64,000 bases of DNA from an uncultured Clostridia bacterium (GTDB taxonomy: Bacteria; Bacillota; Clostridia; Oscillospirales; JAAYOS01), in NCBI GenBank assembly GCA_947593925.1, contig CANQDU010000003.1, positions 1 to 64,000 of the forward strand. The letters are read 5' to 3'. The position numbers and the translations under genes were made by a program. The notes below the pieces were generated by a model. It saw nothing but the letters and a program-made list of their open reading frames with translations. It ran no database searches and was not told the origin of the DNA. This document shows positions 1-64,000 of this stretch, piece after piece (positions within the stretch are counted from its first letter, which is position 1; the number at the start of each line of letters is the position of its first letter).

Positions 1-82
1 TCCATTATAGAAGCTTTCCCCTCATGAGTCACCCCCTTTTCTTCCTGTTGCACTTATATTGTAAATCGACAATTTGACTCTA

Positions 83-115
83 TTTCGCCGCTTACGCGGC
101 GAAACTCTGCGAGGC
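83..115 (+). repeat. Repeat family copy R1 (terminal module only)
   Basis: A 9-bp hairpin (TTTCGCCGC, loop TTA, then its complement plus A) is followed directly by CTCTGCGAGGC. The same tail, each time behind a different hairpin or AT-rich stretch, occurs near 11145, 23920 and 24014 and, inverted, at 59005. It lies in the 137-bp space left of the NUDIX gene. Bases 1-60 hold no gene; read leftward they contain purine-rich tracts before ATG triplets and may be the upstream region of a gene outside the window. Confidence 0.7.
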
Positions 116-137
116 GGCAAAAAAGCCCCTTGACTGC

Positions 138-10498: not shown

Positions 10499-10948
10499 AT
10501 GAAAGAATCAAAGTACGATGCGCTCAAAATAGAAAATCAGATCTGCTTCCCGCTCTATGCCGGATCCCGTGAGATAATCAAGCGGTACAAGCCGTATCTT
10601 GACGAGCTTGGCCTTACCTACACCCAGTACATCACCATGATGATACTCTGGGAGGAGAAGGAGGTAACGGTCAAGCAGCTCGGCAAGCGCCTGTATCTCG
10701 ACAGCGGAACTCTCACCCCCTTGCTCAAGAAGCTCGAAGCAAAGGGACTCATCACCCGCGTCCGTCCCATCTCGGACGAGCGCAGCCTGATAGTCTCCAT
10801 CACTCGCGAGGGTTCAAAGCTTCGTGACCTCGCGGTGGACATACCGGCGAAGATGGCGCCCTGCCTGCACCTCACCGAGGATGAGGCGAAGGAGCTCTAC
10901 CGTCTCCTCTACAAGATACTCGCGGCAAGCGAGGAAACTTTCGCGTGA
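10499..10948 (+). CDS. MarR-family regulator, OhrR-like (organic peroxide sensor)
   Basis: A 149-residue winged-helix repressor. It has the OhrR signature around a single reactive cysteine, LKIENQICFPLYAGSREI with Cys16, and the tyrosines expected to hydrogen-bond the thiolate. The DNA-binding part VKQLGKRLYLDSGTLTPLLKKLEAKGLITR is at about residues 55-86, with the wing RPISDERSLIVSIT after it. There is no second cysteine near the C-terminus, so it would be a 1-Cys type sensor. In most genomes it controls an ohr peroxidase gene; none lies nearby, and the upstream oxidase-like gene or a distant target may be regulated. The start has AAAGGGGAAAG upstream. Confidence 0.88.
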   Translation: MKESKYDALKIENQICFPLYAGSREIIKRYKPYLDELGLTYTQYITMMILWEEKEVTVKQLGKRLYLDSGTLTPLLKKLEAKGLITRVRPISDERSLIVSITREGSKLRDLAVDIPAKMAPCLHLTEDEAKELYRLLYKILAASEETFA

Positions 10949-11160
10949 AATCGCGCGGGCTTCGCCCGCGACCTATTTCACGCGAGCCGCCGGACAGAGC
11001 GGAGCTCTGCCGACGGCAGCACTCCGCTACGCGCCGAGTTTTCCGCCTGCGACGGAAAATCGACGCACGCTGCGTGAGAAGAGTTTATTCCGACGTACAC
11101 GCCGCCGGAATAAACGCATTGAGATTATTCGCGCTTTGCGCGAACTCTGCGAGGCTTTGA
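10942..11160 (+). repeat. Structured modular repeat R3
   Basis: From 5' to 3': hairpin 10942-10984 (CGCGTGAAAT arm, which overlaps the end of the OhrR-like gene); conserved CCGCCGGACAGAGCGG and its CAGAGC/GCTCTG stem; conserved ACTCCGCTACGCGCCGAG; a TTTTCCG/CGGAAAA hairpin; conserved AAAATCGACGCACGCT; hairpin 11083-11115 with stem GTTTATTCCG/CGGAATAAAC and conserved loop ACGTACACGCCGC; hairpin TTCGCGC-TTT-GCGCGAA; conserved tail CTCTGCGAGGC (11145-11155). Loops and linkers are shared with R4 and R5, while stems differ but remain paired. No credible protein is encoded here. Confidence 0.85.
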
Positions 11161-11164
11161 CAAG

Positions 11165-11197
11165 CGCGCGCCGGAATTTTCCGGCGCGCGATTTTTT
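11165..11197 (+). terminator. Rho-independent terminator after R3
   Basis: An 11-bp stem (CGCGCGCCGGA and complement), loop ATTT, followed by ATTTTTTATC on the plus strand. It would end transcripts running from the OhrR-like gene through the repeat. Confidence 0.85.
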
Positions 11198-22728: not shown

Positions 22729-23625
22729 ATGGTAGAAATTCTCTATATGTTCAGCAGTTTTAGCCCTGCGGTTTTTACCGTTGTCGCTATACTCTGTCTG
22801 GCCGTCGGCGTCATAGGCTATCGCTTCGATAAGCCCTGTGTCGTCGTCGTTTCGCTGCTGCTTGGCTTCGGCATCGGATACTTTGTCAGCATGGCGGCGT
22901 GGGATGAAGGCATCGGTACTCTTTACCTCGGTTCCTGTATCGGCCTTATCTCGCTGCTCGTCTCCATCAAGGTCCTGCCCGTCAAGCGCTTCTTCCTCGG
23001 CGGCGTAAGCGTGTTCCTTGCCGTGGCAGTTGCCTGCGTTGTTATCATCAACGCCGTCACCGGCACCGACGTTACTTACAGCTTCCAGTCCCTGTCCTCC
23101 GGCTCCTATCAGGATGTCCAGGCTCCCGGCCGCAATAACGACATCAAGGTTGCTTTCGCCGAGGTCGCCAACATGGACAAGGATGACGTCAAGGCCACCA
23201 TCAGCGAAGACAAGATGACCGTTAAGATCCACATGCCCGCGAGCAACCTCGCCCAGCTCACCGAATACGGCGAACAGCTCGCCGCTCATGGGACGTTTGC
23301 CGGCATCGATCAGCTCACCGTTGAGAGCTACTCCAGCGCGTGGACTCCTTCGCTGATAATCGCGGCGGTCTTTGGCGTTGCGTGCGGCGTTCTCACGATG
23401 TTCAAGCCGAAGATCATGCAGATAATCGGCACCAGCGTCTTTGCCGGCGTCTGCGGTTCCGCCTTCGCCTACCTCGGCCTCGGCGAGCTCGGCTTCATCC
23501 TCACCGGCCCGATTTTCTGCGCCGGCGGCATCGCTCTCCAGCGCTTCATCAACCGCAACAGGGATACCGACGTCAAGATCTCCGAGGACTACCGTTCGGA
23601 GCTCGTCGCAGACACCCCTGTCTGA
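22729..23625 (+). CDS. Polytopic membrane protein of unknown function
   Basis: A 298-residue membrane protein I do not recognise with confidence; the pattern recalls DUF4203/TMEM198-like proteins. Predicted helices: about 12-31, 37-55, 62-80, 87-107, then a soluble segment 110-205 (charged, KVAFAEVANMDKDDVKATIS), then 206-224, 230-250 and 254-272. GxxxG-rich helices (GFGIGYFVS, GVCGSAFAYLGLGELG) suggest tight packing. Its codon use favours more C-ending and T-ending codons than neighbours, as in well-expressed genes. Monocistronic: own promoter, long leader, strong terminator. Confidence 0.7.
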   Translation: MVEILYMFSSFSPAVFTVVAILCLAVGVIGYRFDKPCVVVVSLLLGFGIGYFVSMAAWDEGIGTLYLGSCIGLISLLVSIKVLPVKRFFLGGVSVFLAVAVACVVIINAVTGTDVTYSFQSLSSGSYQDVQAPGRNNDIKVAFAEVANMDKDDVKATISEDKMTVKIHMPASNLAQLTEYGEQLAAHGTFAGIDQLTVESYSSAWTPSLIIAAVFGVACGVLTMFKPKIMQIIGTSVFAGVCGSAFAYLGLGELGFILTGPIFCAGGIALQRFINRNRDTDVKISEDYRSELVADTPV

Positions 23626-23715: not shown

Positions 23716-24024
23716 CGTGAGAAACAGTTCGCGGGCATTGCCCGCGAACTGTTTCTCACGAACCGCCGGACAGAGCGGAGCTCTGCCGGCGGCGGCGCCG
23801 TTCTTCGCTCCTCGCGGGCCTTGCCCGCGCGAAGCGCGAACGGCGAGAGGTGTAAATTTCGCCGTACACGCCGCCGAAATTTACCGATTATAATTTATTT
23901 CGCGACTAGCGGCGCGAAACTCTGCGAGGCTTTGCCGGGACGTCGGCGCGGAGCGCCGAGGTCTGATGCGCCCGGTAGAAAATACCGGTGCGTAATAAGT
24001 TGAGGGGCGCATTCTCTGCGAGGC
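23716..24024 (+). repeat. Structured modular repeat R4
   Basis: A 21-bp hairpin (23716-23760, inner GCGGGC-ATT-GCCCGC) is followed by conserved CCGCCGGACAGAGCGG with its CAGAGC/GCTCTG stem, a long branched hairpin CGCCGTTC...GAACGGCG (about 23797-23845), hairpin 23852-23884 (stem GTAAATTTCG/CGAAATTTAC, conserved loop CCGTACACGCCGC), a TTTCGCG/CGCGAAA hairpin and the tail CTCTGCGAGGC (23920-23930). A second tail copy (24014-24024) sits behind another hairpin set (ATGCGCCC/GGGCGCAT enclosing CCGGTA/TACCGG). No convincing gene lies in 23626-24194. Confidence 0.85.
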
Positions 24025-58997: not shown

Positions 58998-59004
58998 ATC
59001 AAAT

Positions 59005-59394
59005 GCCTCGCAGAGTTTAATCCGTTTTTTCCGGCGGCGTGTACGTCGGAAAAAACTCTTTGCGCGTAGCGTGCGTCGATTTTCCGCCGAAGGCGATTCC
59101 GCGCCGGTTCGCGCGGTTGAAGTTGCTTGCCGCAGGCAAGCAACTTCGCGCAGGCGGAATTCATTTCCGCCGAGCATTTCAATCGGAAGGGCTCCCAAAC
59201 GGTCTACTGACCGTTTGGGAATTGCGTCGATTTTCCGCCGAAGGCGGAAAACTCGGCGCGTAGCGGAGCGCTTACTGTCGGTAGGGCTTCGCCCTATCCG
59301 ACAGTTTCACTTGGAATTGCGCTTGCGCAATTCCAAGTGAACTTCTCGCGGCAAATTGGTAAGCGGGCGTAGCGAGCGCGATTTGCCGCGACTG
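59005..59394 (-). repeat. Structured modular repeat R5 (longest copy)
   Basis: Read on the minus strand from 59394: an 11-bp stem ATTTGCCGCGA (59346-59391); a perfect 15-bp hairpin CACTTGGAATTGCGC (59308-59339); an ACTGTCGG-TAGGGC hairpin (59274-59305); conserved CTCCGCTACGCGCCGAG; TTTTCCGCC hairpin (59231-59251); hairpins 59193-59220, 59153-59171 (loop TTCAT) and 59119-59147, matching R2; conserved GGAAAATCGACGCACGCT; hairpin 59024-59056 with loop ACGTACACGCCGC; tail CTCTGCGAGGC (59015-59005). It fills the space after polC. No convincing gene lies in 58865-59394. Confidence 0.85.
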
Positions 59395-62300
59395 CTAGAA
59401 TAGTGATACCTGGTTGCTCTCCGGCAGGCTGTCGAGCGCGCCGCAGCTTTGCAGCAGATCCACCACCGCCTTGGATACCTTCGGGCAGCGGACTTCGAGA
59501 TCTTCCACCGAGATGAACTCGCCGTTTTTGCGTTCCTCCGTTATCTCGCGCGCCGCCTGTTCGCCGAGTCCTGGAAGCGCGGTGAACGGGAGCAGCAGTG
59601 TCTTCTCTCCCACCTCGATAAACTTCGTCGCGTCCGAGCGGTAGAGGTCGATCTTTGCCATATCCAGCCCGCGCAGATAGAACTCGTAGACGACCTCGAG
59701 CGTCGTCAGCAGATCCTCGTCGCGCGCGGTGAGGTTCTTTGCCTCGCGCAGCTCGAGTATCTTGCTCTTTACCCCTTCCAAACCGGAGGTCATTATGTTG
59801 GCGTCGAGCACCTTTGCGCGGATGGTGAAGTATGTGCAGTAGAAGTCGAGCGGGCGGTGGACCTTGTACCACGCTATGCGGAAGGCGCTGAGGACGTACG
59901 CGGCGGCGTGCGCCTTCGGGAAGAGGTACTTTATCTTCTTACAGCTCTCTATGTACCACTCGGGAACGCCGTGCTCACGCATCTCGGCCTCCCACTCGGG
60001 CTTCACGCCCTTGCCCTTGCGGATGGCCTCGCTCATCGAGAAGGCCTGCTTATTCGCTATCCCCTTGCTCATGAGGAATATCGTGATGTCGTCCCGCGCG
60101 CCGACGACCTCCTTCAGTGTCGCCAGTCCCTGCTCGATGTAGTCCTTCGCGTTGTCGAGCCAGACGTTCGTGCCGTGGCTCAGGCCGGATATGCGGAGCA
60201 GCTCGTCAAAGGTCTTGGGGTTCGTATCCTCGAGCATGCCGCGAACGAAGCTCGTGCCGAACTCCGGGACGGCCACCGTCCCGCGCCCGCCGAGTATCGG
60301 GTCATCGGTAAAGCCCAAAGCCTCGGTCGAGAGGAAGATGCTCATGGTGTCCTTGTCGTCGAGCGGGACGAGGCGCGGATCCATACCGGAGAGGTCCTGG
60401 AGCATCCTGATTATCGTCGGATCGTCGTGACCGAGCTCGTCGAGCTTCAGCAGGTTCTCCTCTATCGAGTGATAGTCGAAGTGAGTGGTGATGATGTTGC
60501 TCTCGCTCTTGTCGGCGGGGTGCTGTATCGGCGTAAACTCGCAGATGTTGTGGCCGCGCGGCACGACGATAAGTCCGCCGGGGTGCTGCCCCGTCGTCTT
60601 GCGGACGCCGACTATGCCCTGCGCGAGGCGGTTCTCCTCCGCGCGGGTGAGCGTCAGCTCGTGCTCCTCGGCGTATTTCCTGACGTAGCCTATCGCGTTC
60701 TTCTCCGCTATGGTGCCTATCGTGCCCGCGCGGAAGACCTGTCCCTCGCCGAAGAGCTCTATCGTGTACTGGTGCGCGCGGGACTGGTACTCGCTCGAGA
60801 AGTTGAGGTCTATATCCGGCTTCTTGTCCCCCTCGAAGCCGAGGAAGGTCGCAAACAGTATGTCGAAGCCGTCCTTCTCGTAGTCCGCGCCGCAGACGGG
60901 GCACTTCTTGTCCGGCAGGTCCGGACCTGTCGGCGCAGCGTCCGAGAACTCGTGGTGCTTGCACTTGGGGCAGCGGTAGTGCGGCGGGAGTGCGTTCACC
61001 TCGGTGATGTCCGAGAGGAACGCGACTATCGACGAGCCGACGGAGCCGCGCGAGCCGACGAGGTACCCGTCCTCGAGCGACTTTGCGACGAGCTTCTGCG
61101 CTATCATGTATATGACGTCGAAGCCGTGGCCGACTATCGACTTCATCTCGGTCTCGACCCGCTCGCGTATCAGCGGGTGGACATCCTTGCCGTAGAGGCG
61201 TTCGAGCTTGCTTTCGACAAGCGAACGCAGATCCTCCGCCGAGTTCTCTATCTTCGGCTCGAAGGTTCCGTGCCTGACCGGCCGCACGAGCTCGCACATG
61301 TCGGCTATGCGGTTCGGGTTAGTTATGACGACCTCTCGCGCCTTCTCCTCGCCAAGGTACATGAACTCCTCGAGCATCTCCTCCGTCGTGCGGAAGAAGA
61401 GCGGCGCCTGCTGTTCGCCGTCCGCAAAGCCGCTCATCAGCACGCGGCGGTATATCTCGTCCTCCGGCTCCATAAAGTGTACGTCGCAGGTCGCGACGAC
61501 CGGCTTTCCGAGCTTTTCGCCGAGCTCGACTATCCTGCGGTTGAAGTCCCGCAGCTCCTCCACGTCCTTCACGCGCCCCTCGCGCAGGAGGAACATATTG
61601 TTGCCTATCGGCTGTATCTCAAGGTAGTCGTAGTAGTCGGCTATGCGCAGGAGCTCGCTCTCCGGCGCTCCGTCTACCATTGCGCGGAAGAGCTCGCCCG
61701 CCTCGCACGCGGAGCCGACGAGCAGTCCCTCGCGGCGGCGGTCAAGCTCGGTGCGCGGCACGAGCGGGTTCCGCTTGTAGTGCTCGAGAAATCCCGCGCT
61801 TATCAGGTCGTAGAGGTTGCGAAGACCCGTCTCGTTCCTCGCGAGAAGTATCATGTGGTTCGAGCGCCCGGTGAGGACGTTCGAGCCGACGTTTTCCGCG
61901 AGGTACCCGTTTATGCCGGAGATGTCGTTCACTCCGGCGGCGGTGAGCCGCGCGAAGAAGTCGAAAAGTATGTACGCGACCGCCGCCGCGTCGTCCGAGG
62001 CGCGGTGGTGGCGGAACTCCGGCACCTTCGTCTCGAGCGAGACGGTGTGAAGGTCGAACTTCGTCAGCGTCGGCAGCAGTCCGCGCGCCATGTTCCGCGA
62101 GTCTATGAACGTCGGCTCGAACGGTATGCCGAGCTCGCGGCAGGCGGCGGAGATGAAGCCGACGTCGAACGTGGCGTTGTGCGCCGCGAGCACGCTCTCG
62201 CCCGCAAACTCGAGAAATCCGCGTATCGCCGTCTCGATACCGGGCGCGCCGCGCAGCATCTCGTCGGTGATGCCGGTGAGCTCGACTATCTTCTGCGGCA

Positions 62301-63696
62301 GCGGACGCCCGGGCGCGGCAAAGGTATTGAACCTGTCCACTATCTCGCCCGAGCGGAAGCGCACCGCGCCTATCTCGATTATCCTGTCGCTCGCGGCGGA
62401 GAGGCCGGTCGTCTCTATGTCAAACGCGACAAACTCCCCCGAGATCGGCGCGGACTTGTCTCCGTACACCGAGCGGACGCGCTCGATGTCGTTGACGAAG
62501 TAGCACTCGGTGCCGTAGAGCACCTTAAACTCGTCGCCCTTCTCGCGGCCCTTGTTTATCTTCTCCTGCGCCATCATCGCGTCCGGGAAGGCGTGGACGA
62601 CGCCGTGGTCGGTTATCGCGACGGCGCGGTGTCCCCACGCGGCGGCGCGGCGGACGGCGTCGGCCGCGCCGACCGTCGCGTCCATGGCGCTCATCTTGGT
62701 GTGAAGATGCAGCTCGACGCGCTTCTCCGGCGCGTTGTCCCGCCGTCCCTCCGGCGGGTCTATTTTCCATATCGTGTCCGGGTCTATGACTGCGCACTTG
62801 TCAAACTCGTTGTAGACCATCCTGCCGCTCACCGCAAGCCACAGCCCGGGGTATATCTTATTCAGGATCTCCGCCGTGGGAGCGTTCGCGTCGCGGCGGA
62901 AACGCTCGTTCTGCCCGTCCCCGTCGTCCTCGCGCGCCGGGCGGAACGCCCGCGACACGCGCACGGCGCCGGTGTCGTCCGCGATATCGAACTTCATCAC
63001 GCAGGAACCCATGCGGGTCTTTTCTATGTGCTCGGTCCATATGACCTTGCCGTGCACGGTCTGGCGGCCCGAATCGACCGTCATCTCGTTCATCGGAATA
63101 TATCCCTCGCCGCCGACGCGCCTGCCGTATATCAGAGGCGACTCGGCGCTCGCCGCGAGGTTTTTCATCTCCGCCGCCGCCTGCTTTTCAAGCGTCTGTA
63201 TCGTCTCGGCGCGGCGCTTTTCCGCCTCCTCGGCAGAGCCGTTGTCCTTTGAGGCAAAGCACACCTCCGCCTCACATCCGAAGCTGTCCTTCAGCGCCGC
63301 GCGGAGCTCGTCCGCCCACGACCCGAGCATATCCCCGCCGCCGTGTTCGAGGCGGAAGGTGACCTCTCCCCGCTTCACCTCGAGCTCGCTCCCGCGCAGA
63401 AGGTTCTGCGCGGCGGCGCGTCCCTCGAGAAGCTCCTCCACCGTCCCGCGCACCGCGTCCTCCGAGAGCATGTCCGGGCTGTACCGCGCGGAAATATTCA
63501 CCTCGCCGAGGTCGAACATACCCCTGAGACTCTCGGCGAGGCGCTTCTTCTGCGCCGCCGGGATATACGCCTTCGGGCGCAGCTCCACCGTCATGCTGCG
63601 CTCGCTTCTGTTTACCGAGACGCTCTCCACCTGAGCGTCCCAGAGCCCCGCGCCGTCGCAGGCGGGAAACATCTCTTCAAGTAAGTAGCTGGTCAT
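59395..63696 (-). CDS. PolC-type DNA polymerase III alpha subunit
   Basis: A 1433-residue replicative polymerase of low-GC-type Gram-positives. Order: N-terminal and OB domains (residues 1-325; TVHGKVIWTEHIEKTRMGSCVMKFDIADDTGAV), PHP domain starting RVELHLHTKMSAMDATVGAADAV near 327 and interrupted by the DnaQ-type proofreading exonuclease (FVAFDIETTGLSAASDRIIEIGAV near 420; HNATFDVGF; HRASDDAAAVAYI), zinc ribbon CPKCKHHEF...KKCPVCGADY near 910-940, and the polymerase catalytic motif DKKPDIDLNFSSEYQ near 957. ATG 63696 was chosen over GTG 63702 because GGAG is 7 nt before the former. ispG ends within its first codons. Confidence 0.97.
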   Translation of the reverse strand: MTSYLLEEMFPACDGAGLWDAQVESVSVNRSERSMTVELRPKAYIPAAQKKRLAESLRGMFDLGEVNISARYSPDMLSEDAVRGTVEELLEGRAAAQNLLRGSELEVKRGEVTFRLEHGGGDMLGSWADELRAALKDSFGCEAEVCFASKDNGSAEEAEKRRAETIQTLEKQAAAEMKNLAASAESPLIYGRRVGGEGYIPMNEMTVDSGRQTVHGKVIWTEHIEKTRMGSCVMKFDIADDTGAVRVSRAFRPAREDDGDGQNERFRRDANAPTAEILNKIYPGLWLAVSGRMVYNEFDKCAVIDPDTIWKIDPPEGRRDNAPEKRVELHLHTKMSAMDATVGAADAVRRAAAWGHRAVAITDHGVVHAFPDAMMAQEKINKGREKGDEFKVLYGTECYFVNDIERVRSVYGDKSAPISGEFVAFDIETTGLSAASDRIIEIGAVRFRSGEIVDRFNTFAAPGRPLPQKIVELTGITDEMLRGAPGIETAIRGFLEFAGESVLAAHNATFDVGFISAACRELGIPFEPTFIDSRNMARGLLPTLTKFDLHTVSLETKVPEFRHHRASDDAAAVAYILFDFFARLTAAGVNDISGINGYLAENVGSNVLTGRSNHMILLARNETGLRNLYDLISAGFLEHYKRNPLVPRTELDRRREGLLVGSACEAGELFRAMVDGAPESELLRIADYYDYLEIQPIGNNMFLLREGRVKDVEELRDFNRRIVELGEKLGKPVVATCDVHFMEPEDEIYRRVLMSGFADGEQQAPLFFRTTEEMLEEFMYLGEEKAREVVITNPNRIADMCELVRPVRHGTFEPKIENSAEDLRSLVESKLERLYGKDVHPLIRERVETEMKSIVGHGFDVIYMIAQKLVAKSLEDGYLVGSRGSVGSSIVAFLSDITEVNALPPHYRCPKCKHHEFSDAAPTGPDLPDKKCPVCGADYEKDGFDILFATFLGFEGDKKPDIDLNFSSEYQSRAHQYTIELFGEGQVFRAGTIGTIAEKNAIGYVRKYAEEHELTLTRAEENRLAQGIVGVRKTTGQHPGGLIVVPRGHNICEFTPIQHPADKSESNIITTHFDYHSIEENLLKLDELGHDDPTIIRMLQDLSGMDPRLVPLDDKDTMSIFLSTEALGFTDDPILGGRGTVAVPEFGTSFVRGMLEDTNPKTFDELLRISGLSHGTNVWLDNAKDYIEQGLATLKEVVGARDDITIFLMSKGIANKQAFSMSEAIRKGKGVKPEWEAEMREHGVPEWYIESCKKIKYLFPKAHAAAYVLSAFRIAWYKVHRPLDFYCTYFTIRAKVLDANIMTSGLEGVKSKILELREAKNLTARDEDLLTTLEVVYEFYLRGLDMAKIDLYRSDATKFIEVGEKTLLLPFTALPGLGEQAAREITEERKNGEFISVEDLEVRCPKVSKAVVDLLQSCGALDSLPESNQVSLF

Positions 63697-64000
63697 TTTC
63701 ACACTCCAAAAGCTCTATCTCGTGCATAAGCGCGTCCACGAGCCGCTCCTGCGGCACCTTGGCTATTATCTCTCCCTTTCGGAATATCAGCCCCGAGTCC
63801 GGGCCGCCGGCTATGCCGACGTCGCACTCCCGCGCCTCGCCGGGGCCGTTGACGGCGCAGCCCATGACCGCGACCTTCAGCGGCTTCCGAACGCCCGCGA
63901 GGCGGCGTTCGACCTCCTCCGCGAGCGGTATGAGGTCTATGCGGCACCGTCCGCAGGTGGGGCACGCGACTACCTCCGCGCAGTCCCGCCGTATCTCGAG
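63677..64000 (-). CDS. 4-hydroxy-3-methylbut-2-enyl diphosphate synthase, 3' part
   Basis: C-terminal 107 residues of IspG (GcpE), which reduces methylerythritol cyclodiphosphate in the non-mevalonate pathway; the gene runs out of the window. The iron-sulfur cluster region is clear: VACPTCGRCRIDLIPLAEEVE, then VAVMGCAVNGPGEARECDVGIAGG, with three cysteine ligands, and the terminal LIFRKGEIIAKVPQERLVDALMHEIELLE. The stop lies 26 nt inside the polC reading frame (20 nt past the chosen polC start), so ispG and polC are co-transcribed, an arrangement common in Clostridia. It belongs with ispE at 21 kb. Confidence 0.96.
   Translation of the reverse strand, partial: LEIRRDCAEVVACPTCGRCRIDLIPLAEEVERRLAGVRKPLKVAVMGCAVNGPGEARECDVGIAGGPDSGLIFRKGEIIAKVPQERLVDALMHEIELLECENDQLLT

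What the first reader, a model, noticed from the sequence alone, without database searches (positions are those of the whole stretch)
11083..11115. Conserved-loop, variable-stem hairpin present in three copies with compensatory stem changes
Three hairpins share the 13-nt loop [A/C]CGTACACGCCGC but have different stems: GTTTATTCCG (11083-11115), GTAAATTTCG (23852-23884) and, on the minus strand, GTTTTTTCCG (59056-59024). Every stem is perfectly paired, so changes on one side are matched on the other. A neutral dispersed repeat would keep the stem sequence or lose pairing. This is the mark of selection on structure: a structured RNA, or a hairpin recognised by an enzyme through its loop. It resembles no named riboswitch or REP family that I can recall.
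Basis: partly seen in the sequence, partly recalled or inferred. Interest (0 to 1): 0.78.

Follow-up and report, generated by a model that had tools for sequence, protein, structure and literature searches.

The report
Hairpin-built repeats parked at gene ends
The three hairpins are parts of a non-coding repeat of roughly 200 letters that occurs dozens of times in this genome and in three sister species, usually just after a gene's stop codon; it is likely a small mobile element that needs a helper enzyme, and its hairpins change their stems between related species while staying paired, which suggests that the folded shape itself is what is kept.

Summary
In detail: all three hairpins are there, perfectly paired, with the shared loop. 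The loop occurs 41 times in this genome (reversed control 2), and in three sister species. In the three species read, 91 of 104 stem-bearing contexts pair at all 10 positions. At orthologous sites stems differ in 23 of 34 comparisons, with 83 two-sided against 8 one-sided changes.

The hairpin is module 4 of an element of about five hairpins that begins at or inside the upstream stop codon. A profile finds it in 43 of 394 genomes of the order, and in 2 of 398 sampled across the phylum, both in this order. It has no Rfam match.

Outside this genus the element is 158-266 bp. By strict scoring 37 of 99 copies lie between two copies of one local sequence (control 0 of 978); in 35 of the 37 this is a hairpin, mostly terminator-like. 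In this genus only 1 of 97 copies has a duplication, but presence/absence between sister species is clear at three sites.

Outside the genus A-C outnumbers G-U in the stems, which hints that the strand antisense to the host gene folds; H5 loops point the other way.

Best reading: a MITE-like element, mobilised in trans, landing at transcript ends. No mobilising gene was found.

The parts
10941..10985 (+). Element 1, hairpin H1 (TCGCGTGAAAT...ATTTCACGCGA); its 5' arm holds the TGA stop codon of the gene 10499-10948
   Evidence: Read; gene
10986..11017 (+). Element 1, hairpin H2 (GCCGCCGGACAGAGC...GCTCTGCCGACGGC) with a bulged A
   Evidence: Read
11032..11066 (+). Element 1, hairpin H3 (CGCCGAGTTTTCCGCC...ACGGAAAATCGACGC)
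   Evidence: Read
11083..11115 (+). Element 1, hairpin H4, the reported hairpin: 10-bp stem, conserved loop
   Evidence: R1 match 11070-11158, 85.6 bits, E 4.7e-22
11128..11159 (+). Element 1, hairpin H5 (TTCGCGC...GCGCGAA) and conserved tail ACTCTGCGAGGCTTTG
11166..11197 (+). Intrinsic-terminator-like hairpin and T-run directly after element 1
   Evidence: Read; function inferred
23717..23846 (+). Element 2, hairpins H1 (23717-23759), H2 (23763-23792) and H3 (23796-23846)
   Evidence: Read
23852..23884 (+). Element 2, hairpin H4 (reported)
   Evidence: R1 match 23839-23933, 89.8 bits, E 3e-23
23898..23934 (+). Element 2, hairpin H5 and tail ACTCTGCGAGGCTTTG
59024..59056 (-). Element 3, hairpin H4 (reported); lies after the 3' end of the gene 59395-63702 (-)
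   Evidence: R1 match 59069-59002 (-), 74.8 bits, E 5e-19
59002..59394 (-). Element 3 as a whole, with a second palindromic repeat nested in it (about 59222-59098) and without H5
   Evidence: Read; outer boundary approximate
20..118 (+). Degenerate fourth copy: H5 and tail recognisable, H4 decayed
   Evidence: R1 match 25.9 bits, E 3.2e-5

Best explanation
The reported hairpin is one module of a non-coding, hairpin-built repeat of about 160-270 bp that is likely a non-autonomous mobile element, moved by an unidentified helper enzyme that would read its folded single strand through the conserved loops. Shown: dozens of copies in the genome and three sister species, at the 3' end of genes mostly in the gene's own direction, with presence or absence differing between sister species at three sites. 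Shown outside this genus: exact ends, with many copies lying between two copies of the local terminator-like hairpin. Inferred: that this duplication marks insertion at terminator hairpins, with staggered cuts at the two feet of the hairpin, so that an A-tract stays before the first copy and a T-tract after the second and termination survives. Inferred: that dispersed copies then exchange whole hairpins by recombination or gene conversion, which yields the stem classes seen at orthologous sites, and that mismatched recombinants are rare because paired stems are needed for recognition. Inferred, with mixed evidence: that the strand which folds is the one antisense to the host gene.
For: Copies: 41 loop matches in G000, 45, 39 and 42 in G001, G003 and G004 (a few of them coding), and 3 without a stem in G002. 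Two-sided change: 83 two-sided against 8 one-sided differences in 34 orthologous comparisons, 23 with different stems (pairs picked by hand, matches of 42-146 bp dropped, flanks 75-98% identical); 463 two-sided cells against 136 shuffled in 99 copies outside the genus. Position: upstream gene sense 68, antisense 10 of 103 copies (25 uncalled); outside the genus 57 and 14 of 99 (28 uncalled; 60 and 19 with other offsets); downstream gene 26/23 and 24/33. Mobility: no element at orthologous sites for L010 (G001, G003, G004), L015 (G004) and L026 (G001, G003). Duplication: 43 of 99 copies against 6 of 486 swapped controls with loose scoring (L174, L227 and L268 among them look like chance); 37 of 99 against 0 of 978 with strict scoring, 35 of 37 containing a hairpin of 8 bp or more, 23 of 37 followed by 4 or more T in 8 nt. 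Those 37 give elements of 158-266 bp and duplications of 22-37 bp. Ends: six pairs of CAGNNTGTCRAAAAA in inverted orientation, 234-261 bp apart, in G183. A before the first copy 0.47 and T after the second 0.57, against 0.21 and 0.27 at the inner junctions. Strand: outside the genus H4 GU 0, AC 11; H5 GU 3, AC 15; terminator-like hairpins of the same genomes GU 13, AC 8; apical opposition A-C 61, A-T 19 of 89; sense fold the more stable in 7 of 37.
Against: No mobilising gene was linked to it: no Y1 transposase in the five genomes of the genus; no kilobase-sized element with the same ends in G342, G139 or G183, the one close spacing in G183 being two separate copies around a permease-like gene; and all exact flanking duplications but two (L280, L190, probably chance) span 157-276 bp. 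The inverted ends are clear in G183 only; in G139 and G342 the exact pattern gave no such pair. In the window's own genus 1 of 97 copies has a flanking duplication, so the terminator mechanism is not shown there. 62 of 99 copies outside the genus show no duplication by strict scoring. Against the antisense strand: H5 loops are cUNCGg on the sense strand in 67 of 95; the H5 loop-closing pair, left out of the GU count, is U-G in 21 rows; in the own genus GU 4, AC 5 in H4 and GU 25, AC 47 over all hairpins. Orientation bias and persistence at many orthologous sites also fit a useful 3'-UTR RNA.
Confidence: 0.5

Rival explanations
1. A structured 3'-UTR RNA used by the host. The hairpin chain in the mRNA tail would protect the transcript from 3' exonucleases or tune termination, and the conserved loop would bind a protein. 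Spread through the genome would be secondary.
For: Sense orientation behind the upstream gene in 68 of 78 called copies, starting at or inside the stop codon in the copies read; covariation in both helices; UNCG-type H5 loops on the sense strand in 67 of 95; a terminator follows the element in window copy 1 and in many copies outside the genus.
Against: Few G-U and more A-C on the sense strand outside the genus, while terminator-like hairpins of the same genomes show GU 13, AC 8. Copies come and go between sister species. Gene classes next to the copies were not tested.
Confidence: 0.25
2. Selfish or neutral palindromes kept paired by mutation. During replication one arm of a hairpin templates the other (quasi-palindrome correction, recalled), and gene conversion spreads stem classes, so arms match with no selection on function.
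For: Perfect arms with few wobble pairs; recurrent stem classes shared between species; matching arm changes between the two copies of duplicated terminators, e.g. L246.
Against: Loop, linkers and tail are conserved across genera while arms vary, which needs a constraint. The excess of A-C over G-U is strand-specific, which template switching does not predict.
Confidence: 0.15
3. A non-coding RNA gene transcribed antisense to the host gene. The antisense strand folds into a closing helix with three hairpins, and the RNA acts in trans.
For: Sense fold the more stable in only 7 of 37 elements; apical G-U or A-U pair on the antisense strand in 80 of 89.
Against: In the 37 bounded copies locus-specific sequence adjoins the end where a promoter would lie; dozens of dispersed copies per genome is unusual for an RNA gene.
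Confidence: 0.08

Closest known systems
[quoted passage not shown]
   Same: Short, non-coding, intergenic, many copies, highly paired; outside this genus also inverted ends (G183) and flanking direct duplications (features as given in passages of PMC3049150 and PMC10969869).
   Different: Flanking duplication is long (22-37 bp, one of 61 bp) and mostly a whole hairpin; internal hairpins with conserved loops and exchangeable stems; no parent insertion sequence found; not AT-rich.
BOX elements of Streptococcus pneumoniae
   Same: Composite repeats built of modules, predicted stem-loops, clustered with and nested in other repeats (passages of PMC3049150 and PMC10969869).
   Different: BOX varies by the number of boxB modules; here whole stems are replaced while the loop stays. 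No BOX sequence was compared.
REP/BIME with RAYT transposases
   Same: Dispersed extragenic hairpins with a conserved imperfection in the stem (recalled).
   Different: No Y1 transposase in the five genomes of the genus; stems here are not conserved in sequence.
Group IIC introns
   Same: Target intrinsic terminators (recalled).
   Different: No group II match in the Rfam scans; far too short; flanking duplication present.
Integron attC sites
   Same: Conserved fold with variable stem sequence at the 3' end of genes, acting as a folded single strand (recalled).
   Different: Core sites, arrays and an integrase were not looked for; the flanking duplication is not an integron feature (recalled).

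Membership tests
MITE | Terminal inverted repeats | tested here: inconclusive
   Six inverted pairs of the end pattern in G183, none in G139 and G342; similar ends seen in the 37 bounded copies; not shown in the own genus
MITE | Target site duplication | tested here: inconclusive
   37 of 99 copies outside the genus, control 0 of 978, but unusually long; own genus 1 of 97
MITE | A parent transposon with the same ends | tested here: not met
   None in G342, G139, G183, none in the roughly 0.8-1.5 kb held on each side of most of 99 copies; a wider search could still find one
REP/BIME with RAYT | Y1 (RAYT-type) transposase in the host | tested here: not met
   PF01797: 0 matches in G000-G004; 5 of 14 control genomes rang
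BOX | boxA, boxB, boxC sequence modules | not tested
   No BOX sequence was compared
Group IIC intron | Group II catalytic RNA core | tested here: not met
   No such match at gathering score in the window or in 18 loci
Any known Rfam family | Match at gathering score | tested here: not met
   Only a tRNA in the window and an SRP RNA away from the element in L182
Integron attC | Core sites and integrase | not tested
   Considered from memory only

The most novel reading that the evidence does not exclude
A new class of mobile element that recognises the extruded hairpin of an intrinsic terminator, cuts at its two feet and inserts a chain of hairpins, so that the whole terminator is copied and both directions of termination survive; it is itself recognised as a folded single strand, perhaps the one antisense to the host gene, and its copies trade hairpins as cassettes.
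Probability: 0.3. Interest if true: 0.82.

Novelty: new variant of a known kind. Interest (0 to 1): 0.62.

Why it matters
It would be a widespread repeat family of one bacterial order, with named carriers such as Pseudoflavonifractor gallinarum and Vescimonas fastidiosa, without an Rfam match and without a description in my searches of an open-access paper library. Insertion at terminators with copying of the whole hairpin would be a way for an element to enter a gene's 3' end without breaking termination. The exchange of stems at orthologous sites, with pairing kept, gives a natural system for asking whether palindromes are kept by selection or by copying. In practice the element can change the last codons of a gene (L010) and one copy is annotated as a protein in a public record (KI236_RS09015).

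Tried and rejected
REP/RAYT: not a member, since no Y1 transposase exists in the genus. Known riboswitch or ncRNA: no Rfam match. Autonomous parent: sought by end pattern, by wider flanking duplications and by reading one 3.2-kb stretch of G183; not found. Loop matches in the relatives other than G001, G003 and G004 that were read have no real stem (at most 6 of 10 pairs) and were dropped. Gene orientation: a first hexamer model was trained partly on antisense frames and gave misleading strands (own genus 54 sense and 35 antisense; others 18 and 69); it was replaced by a model checked on seven window genes. An A-C opposition that I had supposed in H2 was withdrawn: the search matched nothing, and the sequence shows a bulged A. 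An ortholog of window locus 3 in G002 was of no use because gene order differs there. The insertion-sequence end that follows H4 at some contig ends could not be identified. Inverted rather than direct copying of the terminator was tested: direct fits better in 33 of 39 duplicated cases, inverted in 5, one tie; in two of the five the win comes from the element's ends. Literature: searches returned nothing; some searches returned listings, none describing this element as far as the titles and abstract starts shown tell; passages of PMC3049150 and PMC10969869 were seen, no paper was read whole.

Full report
What was claimed and what is there. The three hairpins lie exactly at the stated coordinates with perfect 10-bp stems and the shared loop. 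The loop occurs 41 times in the 1.87-Mb genome, the reversed pattern twice. Of 40 distinct contexts, 37 have a stem (5 or more of 10 pairs) and three have none. In three species together 91 of 104 stem-bearing contexts are paired at all ten positions; the rest carry one-sided mutations or combine the arms of two stem classes.

The hairpin is part of a larger element. Reading the copies with their flanks (part of the output cut) shows a recurring chain: H1, a long hairpin at or inside the stop codon of the upstream gene; H2 with a bulged A; H3; H4, the reported hairpin; a spacer; H5; and a tail ACTCTGCGAGGCTTT. The hairpins have recognisable loops or linkers and variable arms. In the window copies 1 and 2 span about 219 bp each (10941-11159, 23717-23934). 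The element follows a MarR-like gene (10499-10948, whose stop codon lies in H1), a membrane-protein-like gene (22729-23625) and a polC-like gene (59395-63702, minus); these names are my reading of the translations. Copy 3 lacks H5 and contains another palindromic repeat. A degenerate fourth copy lies at 20-118.

Distribution. The loop is about as frequent in G001, G003 and G004 of the same genus (45, 39, 42 matches); in G002 three matches have no stem (of G003 one copy was read). A pattern of one stem class found 43 stretches in named genome records, among them Pseudoflavonifractor gallinarum and Oscillibacter; one, L184, looks like coding sequence. A covariance model of H4-H5 built from 40 copies matched 43 of 394 genomes of the order at E 1e-4, 27 of them in one family; in the window's own family only the window's genus, 4 of 5 species (at most ten candidates were scored per genome, so copy numbers there are capped). 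A sample of 398 genomes of the phylum gave two, both in this order. Vescimonas fastidiosa MM35 carries at least 40 places on one replicon (limit reached); five phage records also match, one over most of the query. Rfam has nothing for it at gathering score in the window or in 18 loci.

Pairing. On 99 profile matches from outside the genus (95 distinct), H4 is paired in 98.0% and H5 in 95.7% of cells, with 463 two-sided cells against 136 in shuffles; sliding the partner by one to three columns lowers the covariation score from 0.658 to at most 0.144. The alignment was fitted to the model, which favours pairing. Independent of the model, 34 comparisons of orthologous copies in four species, some sharing a locus, show 11 identical stems, 23 different, and 83 two-sided against 8 one-sided changes; arms differ at 26% of sites and an 18-nt upstream linker at 17%. 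The pairs were picked by hand; matches of 42-146 bp were dropped. The stems switch between a few recurrent classes, and H1-H3 are also exchanged or lost, for example L003/L076 and L008/L099. This looks like exchange between dispersed copies more than stepwise compensation.

Which strand folds. Outside the genus A-C, the complement of G-U, outnumbers G-U: H4 GU 0, AC 11, other 4; H5 GU 3, AC 15, other 17 (leaving out the outermost H4 pair and the H5 loop-closing pair, which is U-G in 21 rows). Terminator-like hairpins from the same genomes show GU 13, AC 8, the elements GU 4, AC 28, the latter including the apical opposition. That opposition is A-C in 61 and A-T in 19 of 89 copies, thus G-U or A-U on the other strand. 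The sense strand is the more stable fold in 7 of 37 elements. Against this, H5 closes with a cUNCGg loop on the sense strand in 67 of 95, a loop type known from RNA (recalled). In the window's genus the A-C effect is weak: GU 4, AC 5, other 8 in H4, GU 25, AC 47, other 53 over all hairpins, and the apical opposition is A-C in 68 and C-C in 33 of 107. Related copies are not independent. I take the antisense strand as somewhat favoured, no more.

Position and insertion. With gene calls checked on seven window genes, the upstream gene runs in the element's direction in 68 copies and against it in 10 of 103 (25 uncalled); outside the genus 57 and 14 of 99 (28 uncalled); downstream genes 26/23 and 24/33. 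Outside the genus 43 of 99 copies score as flanked by a duplicated sequence against 6 of 486 swapped-flank controls; at least three of the 43 look like chance alignments. With strict scoring it is 37 of 99 against 0 of 978; 35 of the 37 duplicated sequences contain a hairpin of 8 bp or more, and 23 of the second copies are followed by 4 or more T in 8 nt. The 37 define elements of 158-266 bp and duplications of 22-37 bp; A is enriched before the first copy (0.47) and T after the second (0.57). The natural reading is insertion at a terminator with duplication of its hairpin. In the window's genus one of 97 copies, L026, has a duplication, 61 bp of a gene end; the swapped control gave 4 of 483, so that figure alone is not above chance and rests on the length of the L026 match and on its empty sites. 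Orthologous sites without the element exist for L010 in three sister species, where the gene ends in other codons, for L015 in G004, where one terminator stands in its place, and for L026 in G001 and G003. Seven loci were examined; L005, L018 and L024 gave no clear empty site among the close species, L002 shows a remnant in G001, and L015 has rearranged repeats in G001.

Mechanism. I commit to a non-autonomous, MITE-like mobile element moved in trans, with hairpins recognised as folded single strand through the loop (0.5). The helper is not identified: no Y1 transposase in the genus, no larger element with the same ends in three genomes or in the flanks held of 99 copies. The inverted ends are best seen in G183, with six pairs 234-261 bp apart; G139 and G342 gave none with the exact pattern. 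The rivals are a host 3'-UTR RNA, palindromes kept by template switching, and an antisense RNA gene.

Novelty. Composite palindromic repeats and MITEs are known kinds; BOX elements are the nearest in build, by the passages seen of PMC3049150. What differs is the conserved-loop, exchangeable-stem hairpins and the duplication of an entire hairpin at the insertion site. Searches of the open-access paper library did not turn up a description; that library lacks most subscription journals.

Noticed in passing
L033, L039, L040, L042 (contig ends of G000): An unidentified insertion-sequence-like end (GGTGAATTGTCAAGTTAAGTGCAACAGTGA) begins right after H4 and breaks the contigs there; its 20-mer was found at four contig ends of G000 and in none of the four sister species.
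   Followed up: partly
window 59098-59222; also L006, L023, L025, L034, L037: A second palindromic repeat family (ATTCCCACGCGGTC...GAAATGCTCGG...) is nested inside the hairpin element.
   Followed up: no
L190 (Defluviitaleaceae MAG): A lone H4-like hairpin with the same loop and another stem in a different group of Clostridia; H5 is not recognisable.
   Followed up: no
L010 (G000:C1:223766): The element replaces the last codons of the upstream gene: the occupied allele ends FFDAKCAR, the sister species end FLREHGDA or FLNEHGDA (translated by eye).
   Followed up: partly
L473 (G183:C5:91100-91600), also L202 and L207: The second terminator copy carries the loop of the first in inverted orientation, as if the hairpin had been copied from the other strand; most duplicated terminators are direct copies (33 of 39).
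   Followed up: partly
L425 16927-17106 (NZ_AP023416.1 376926-377105): A copy of the element in Vescimonas fastidiosa is annotated as a hypothetical protein, KI236_RS09015.
   Followed up: no
L020, about 200-380 bp downstream of H4: The own genome also holds an H4 with the other loop type (GCGCATGT), so the count of 41 by exact loop is a lower bound for the family.
   Followed up: no
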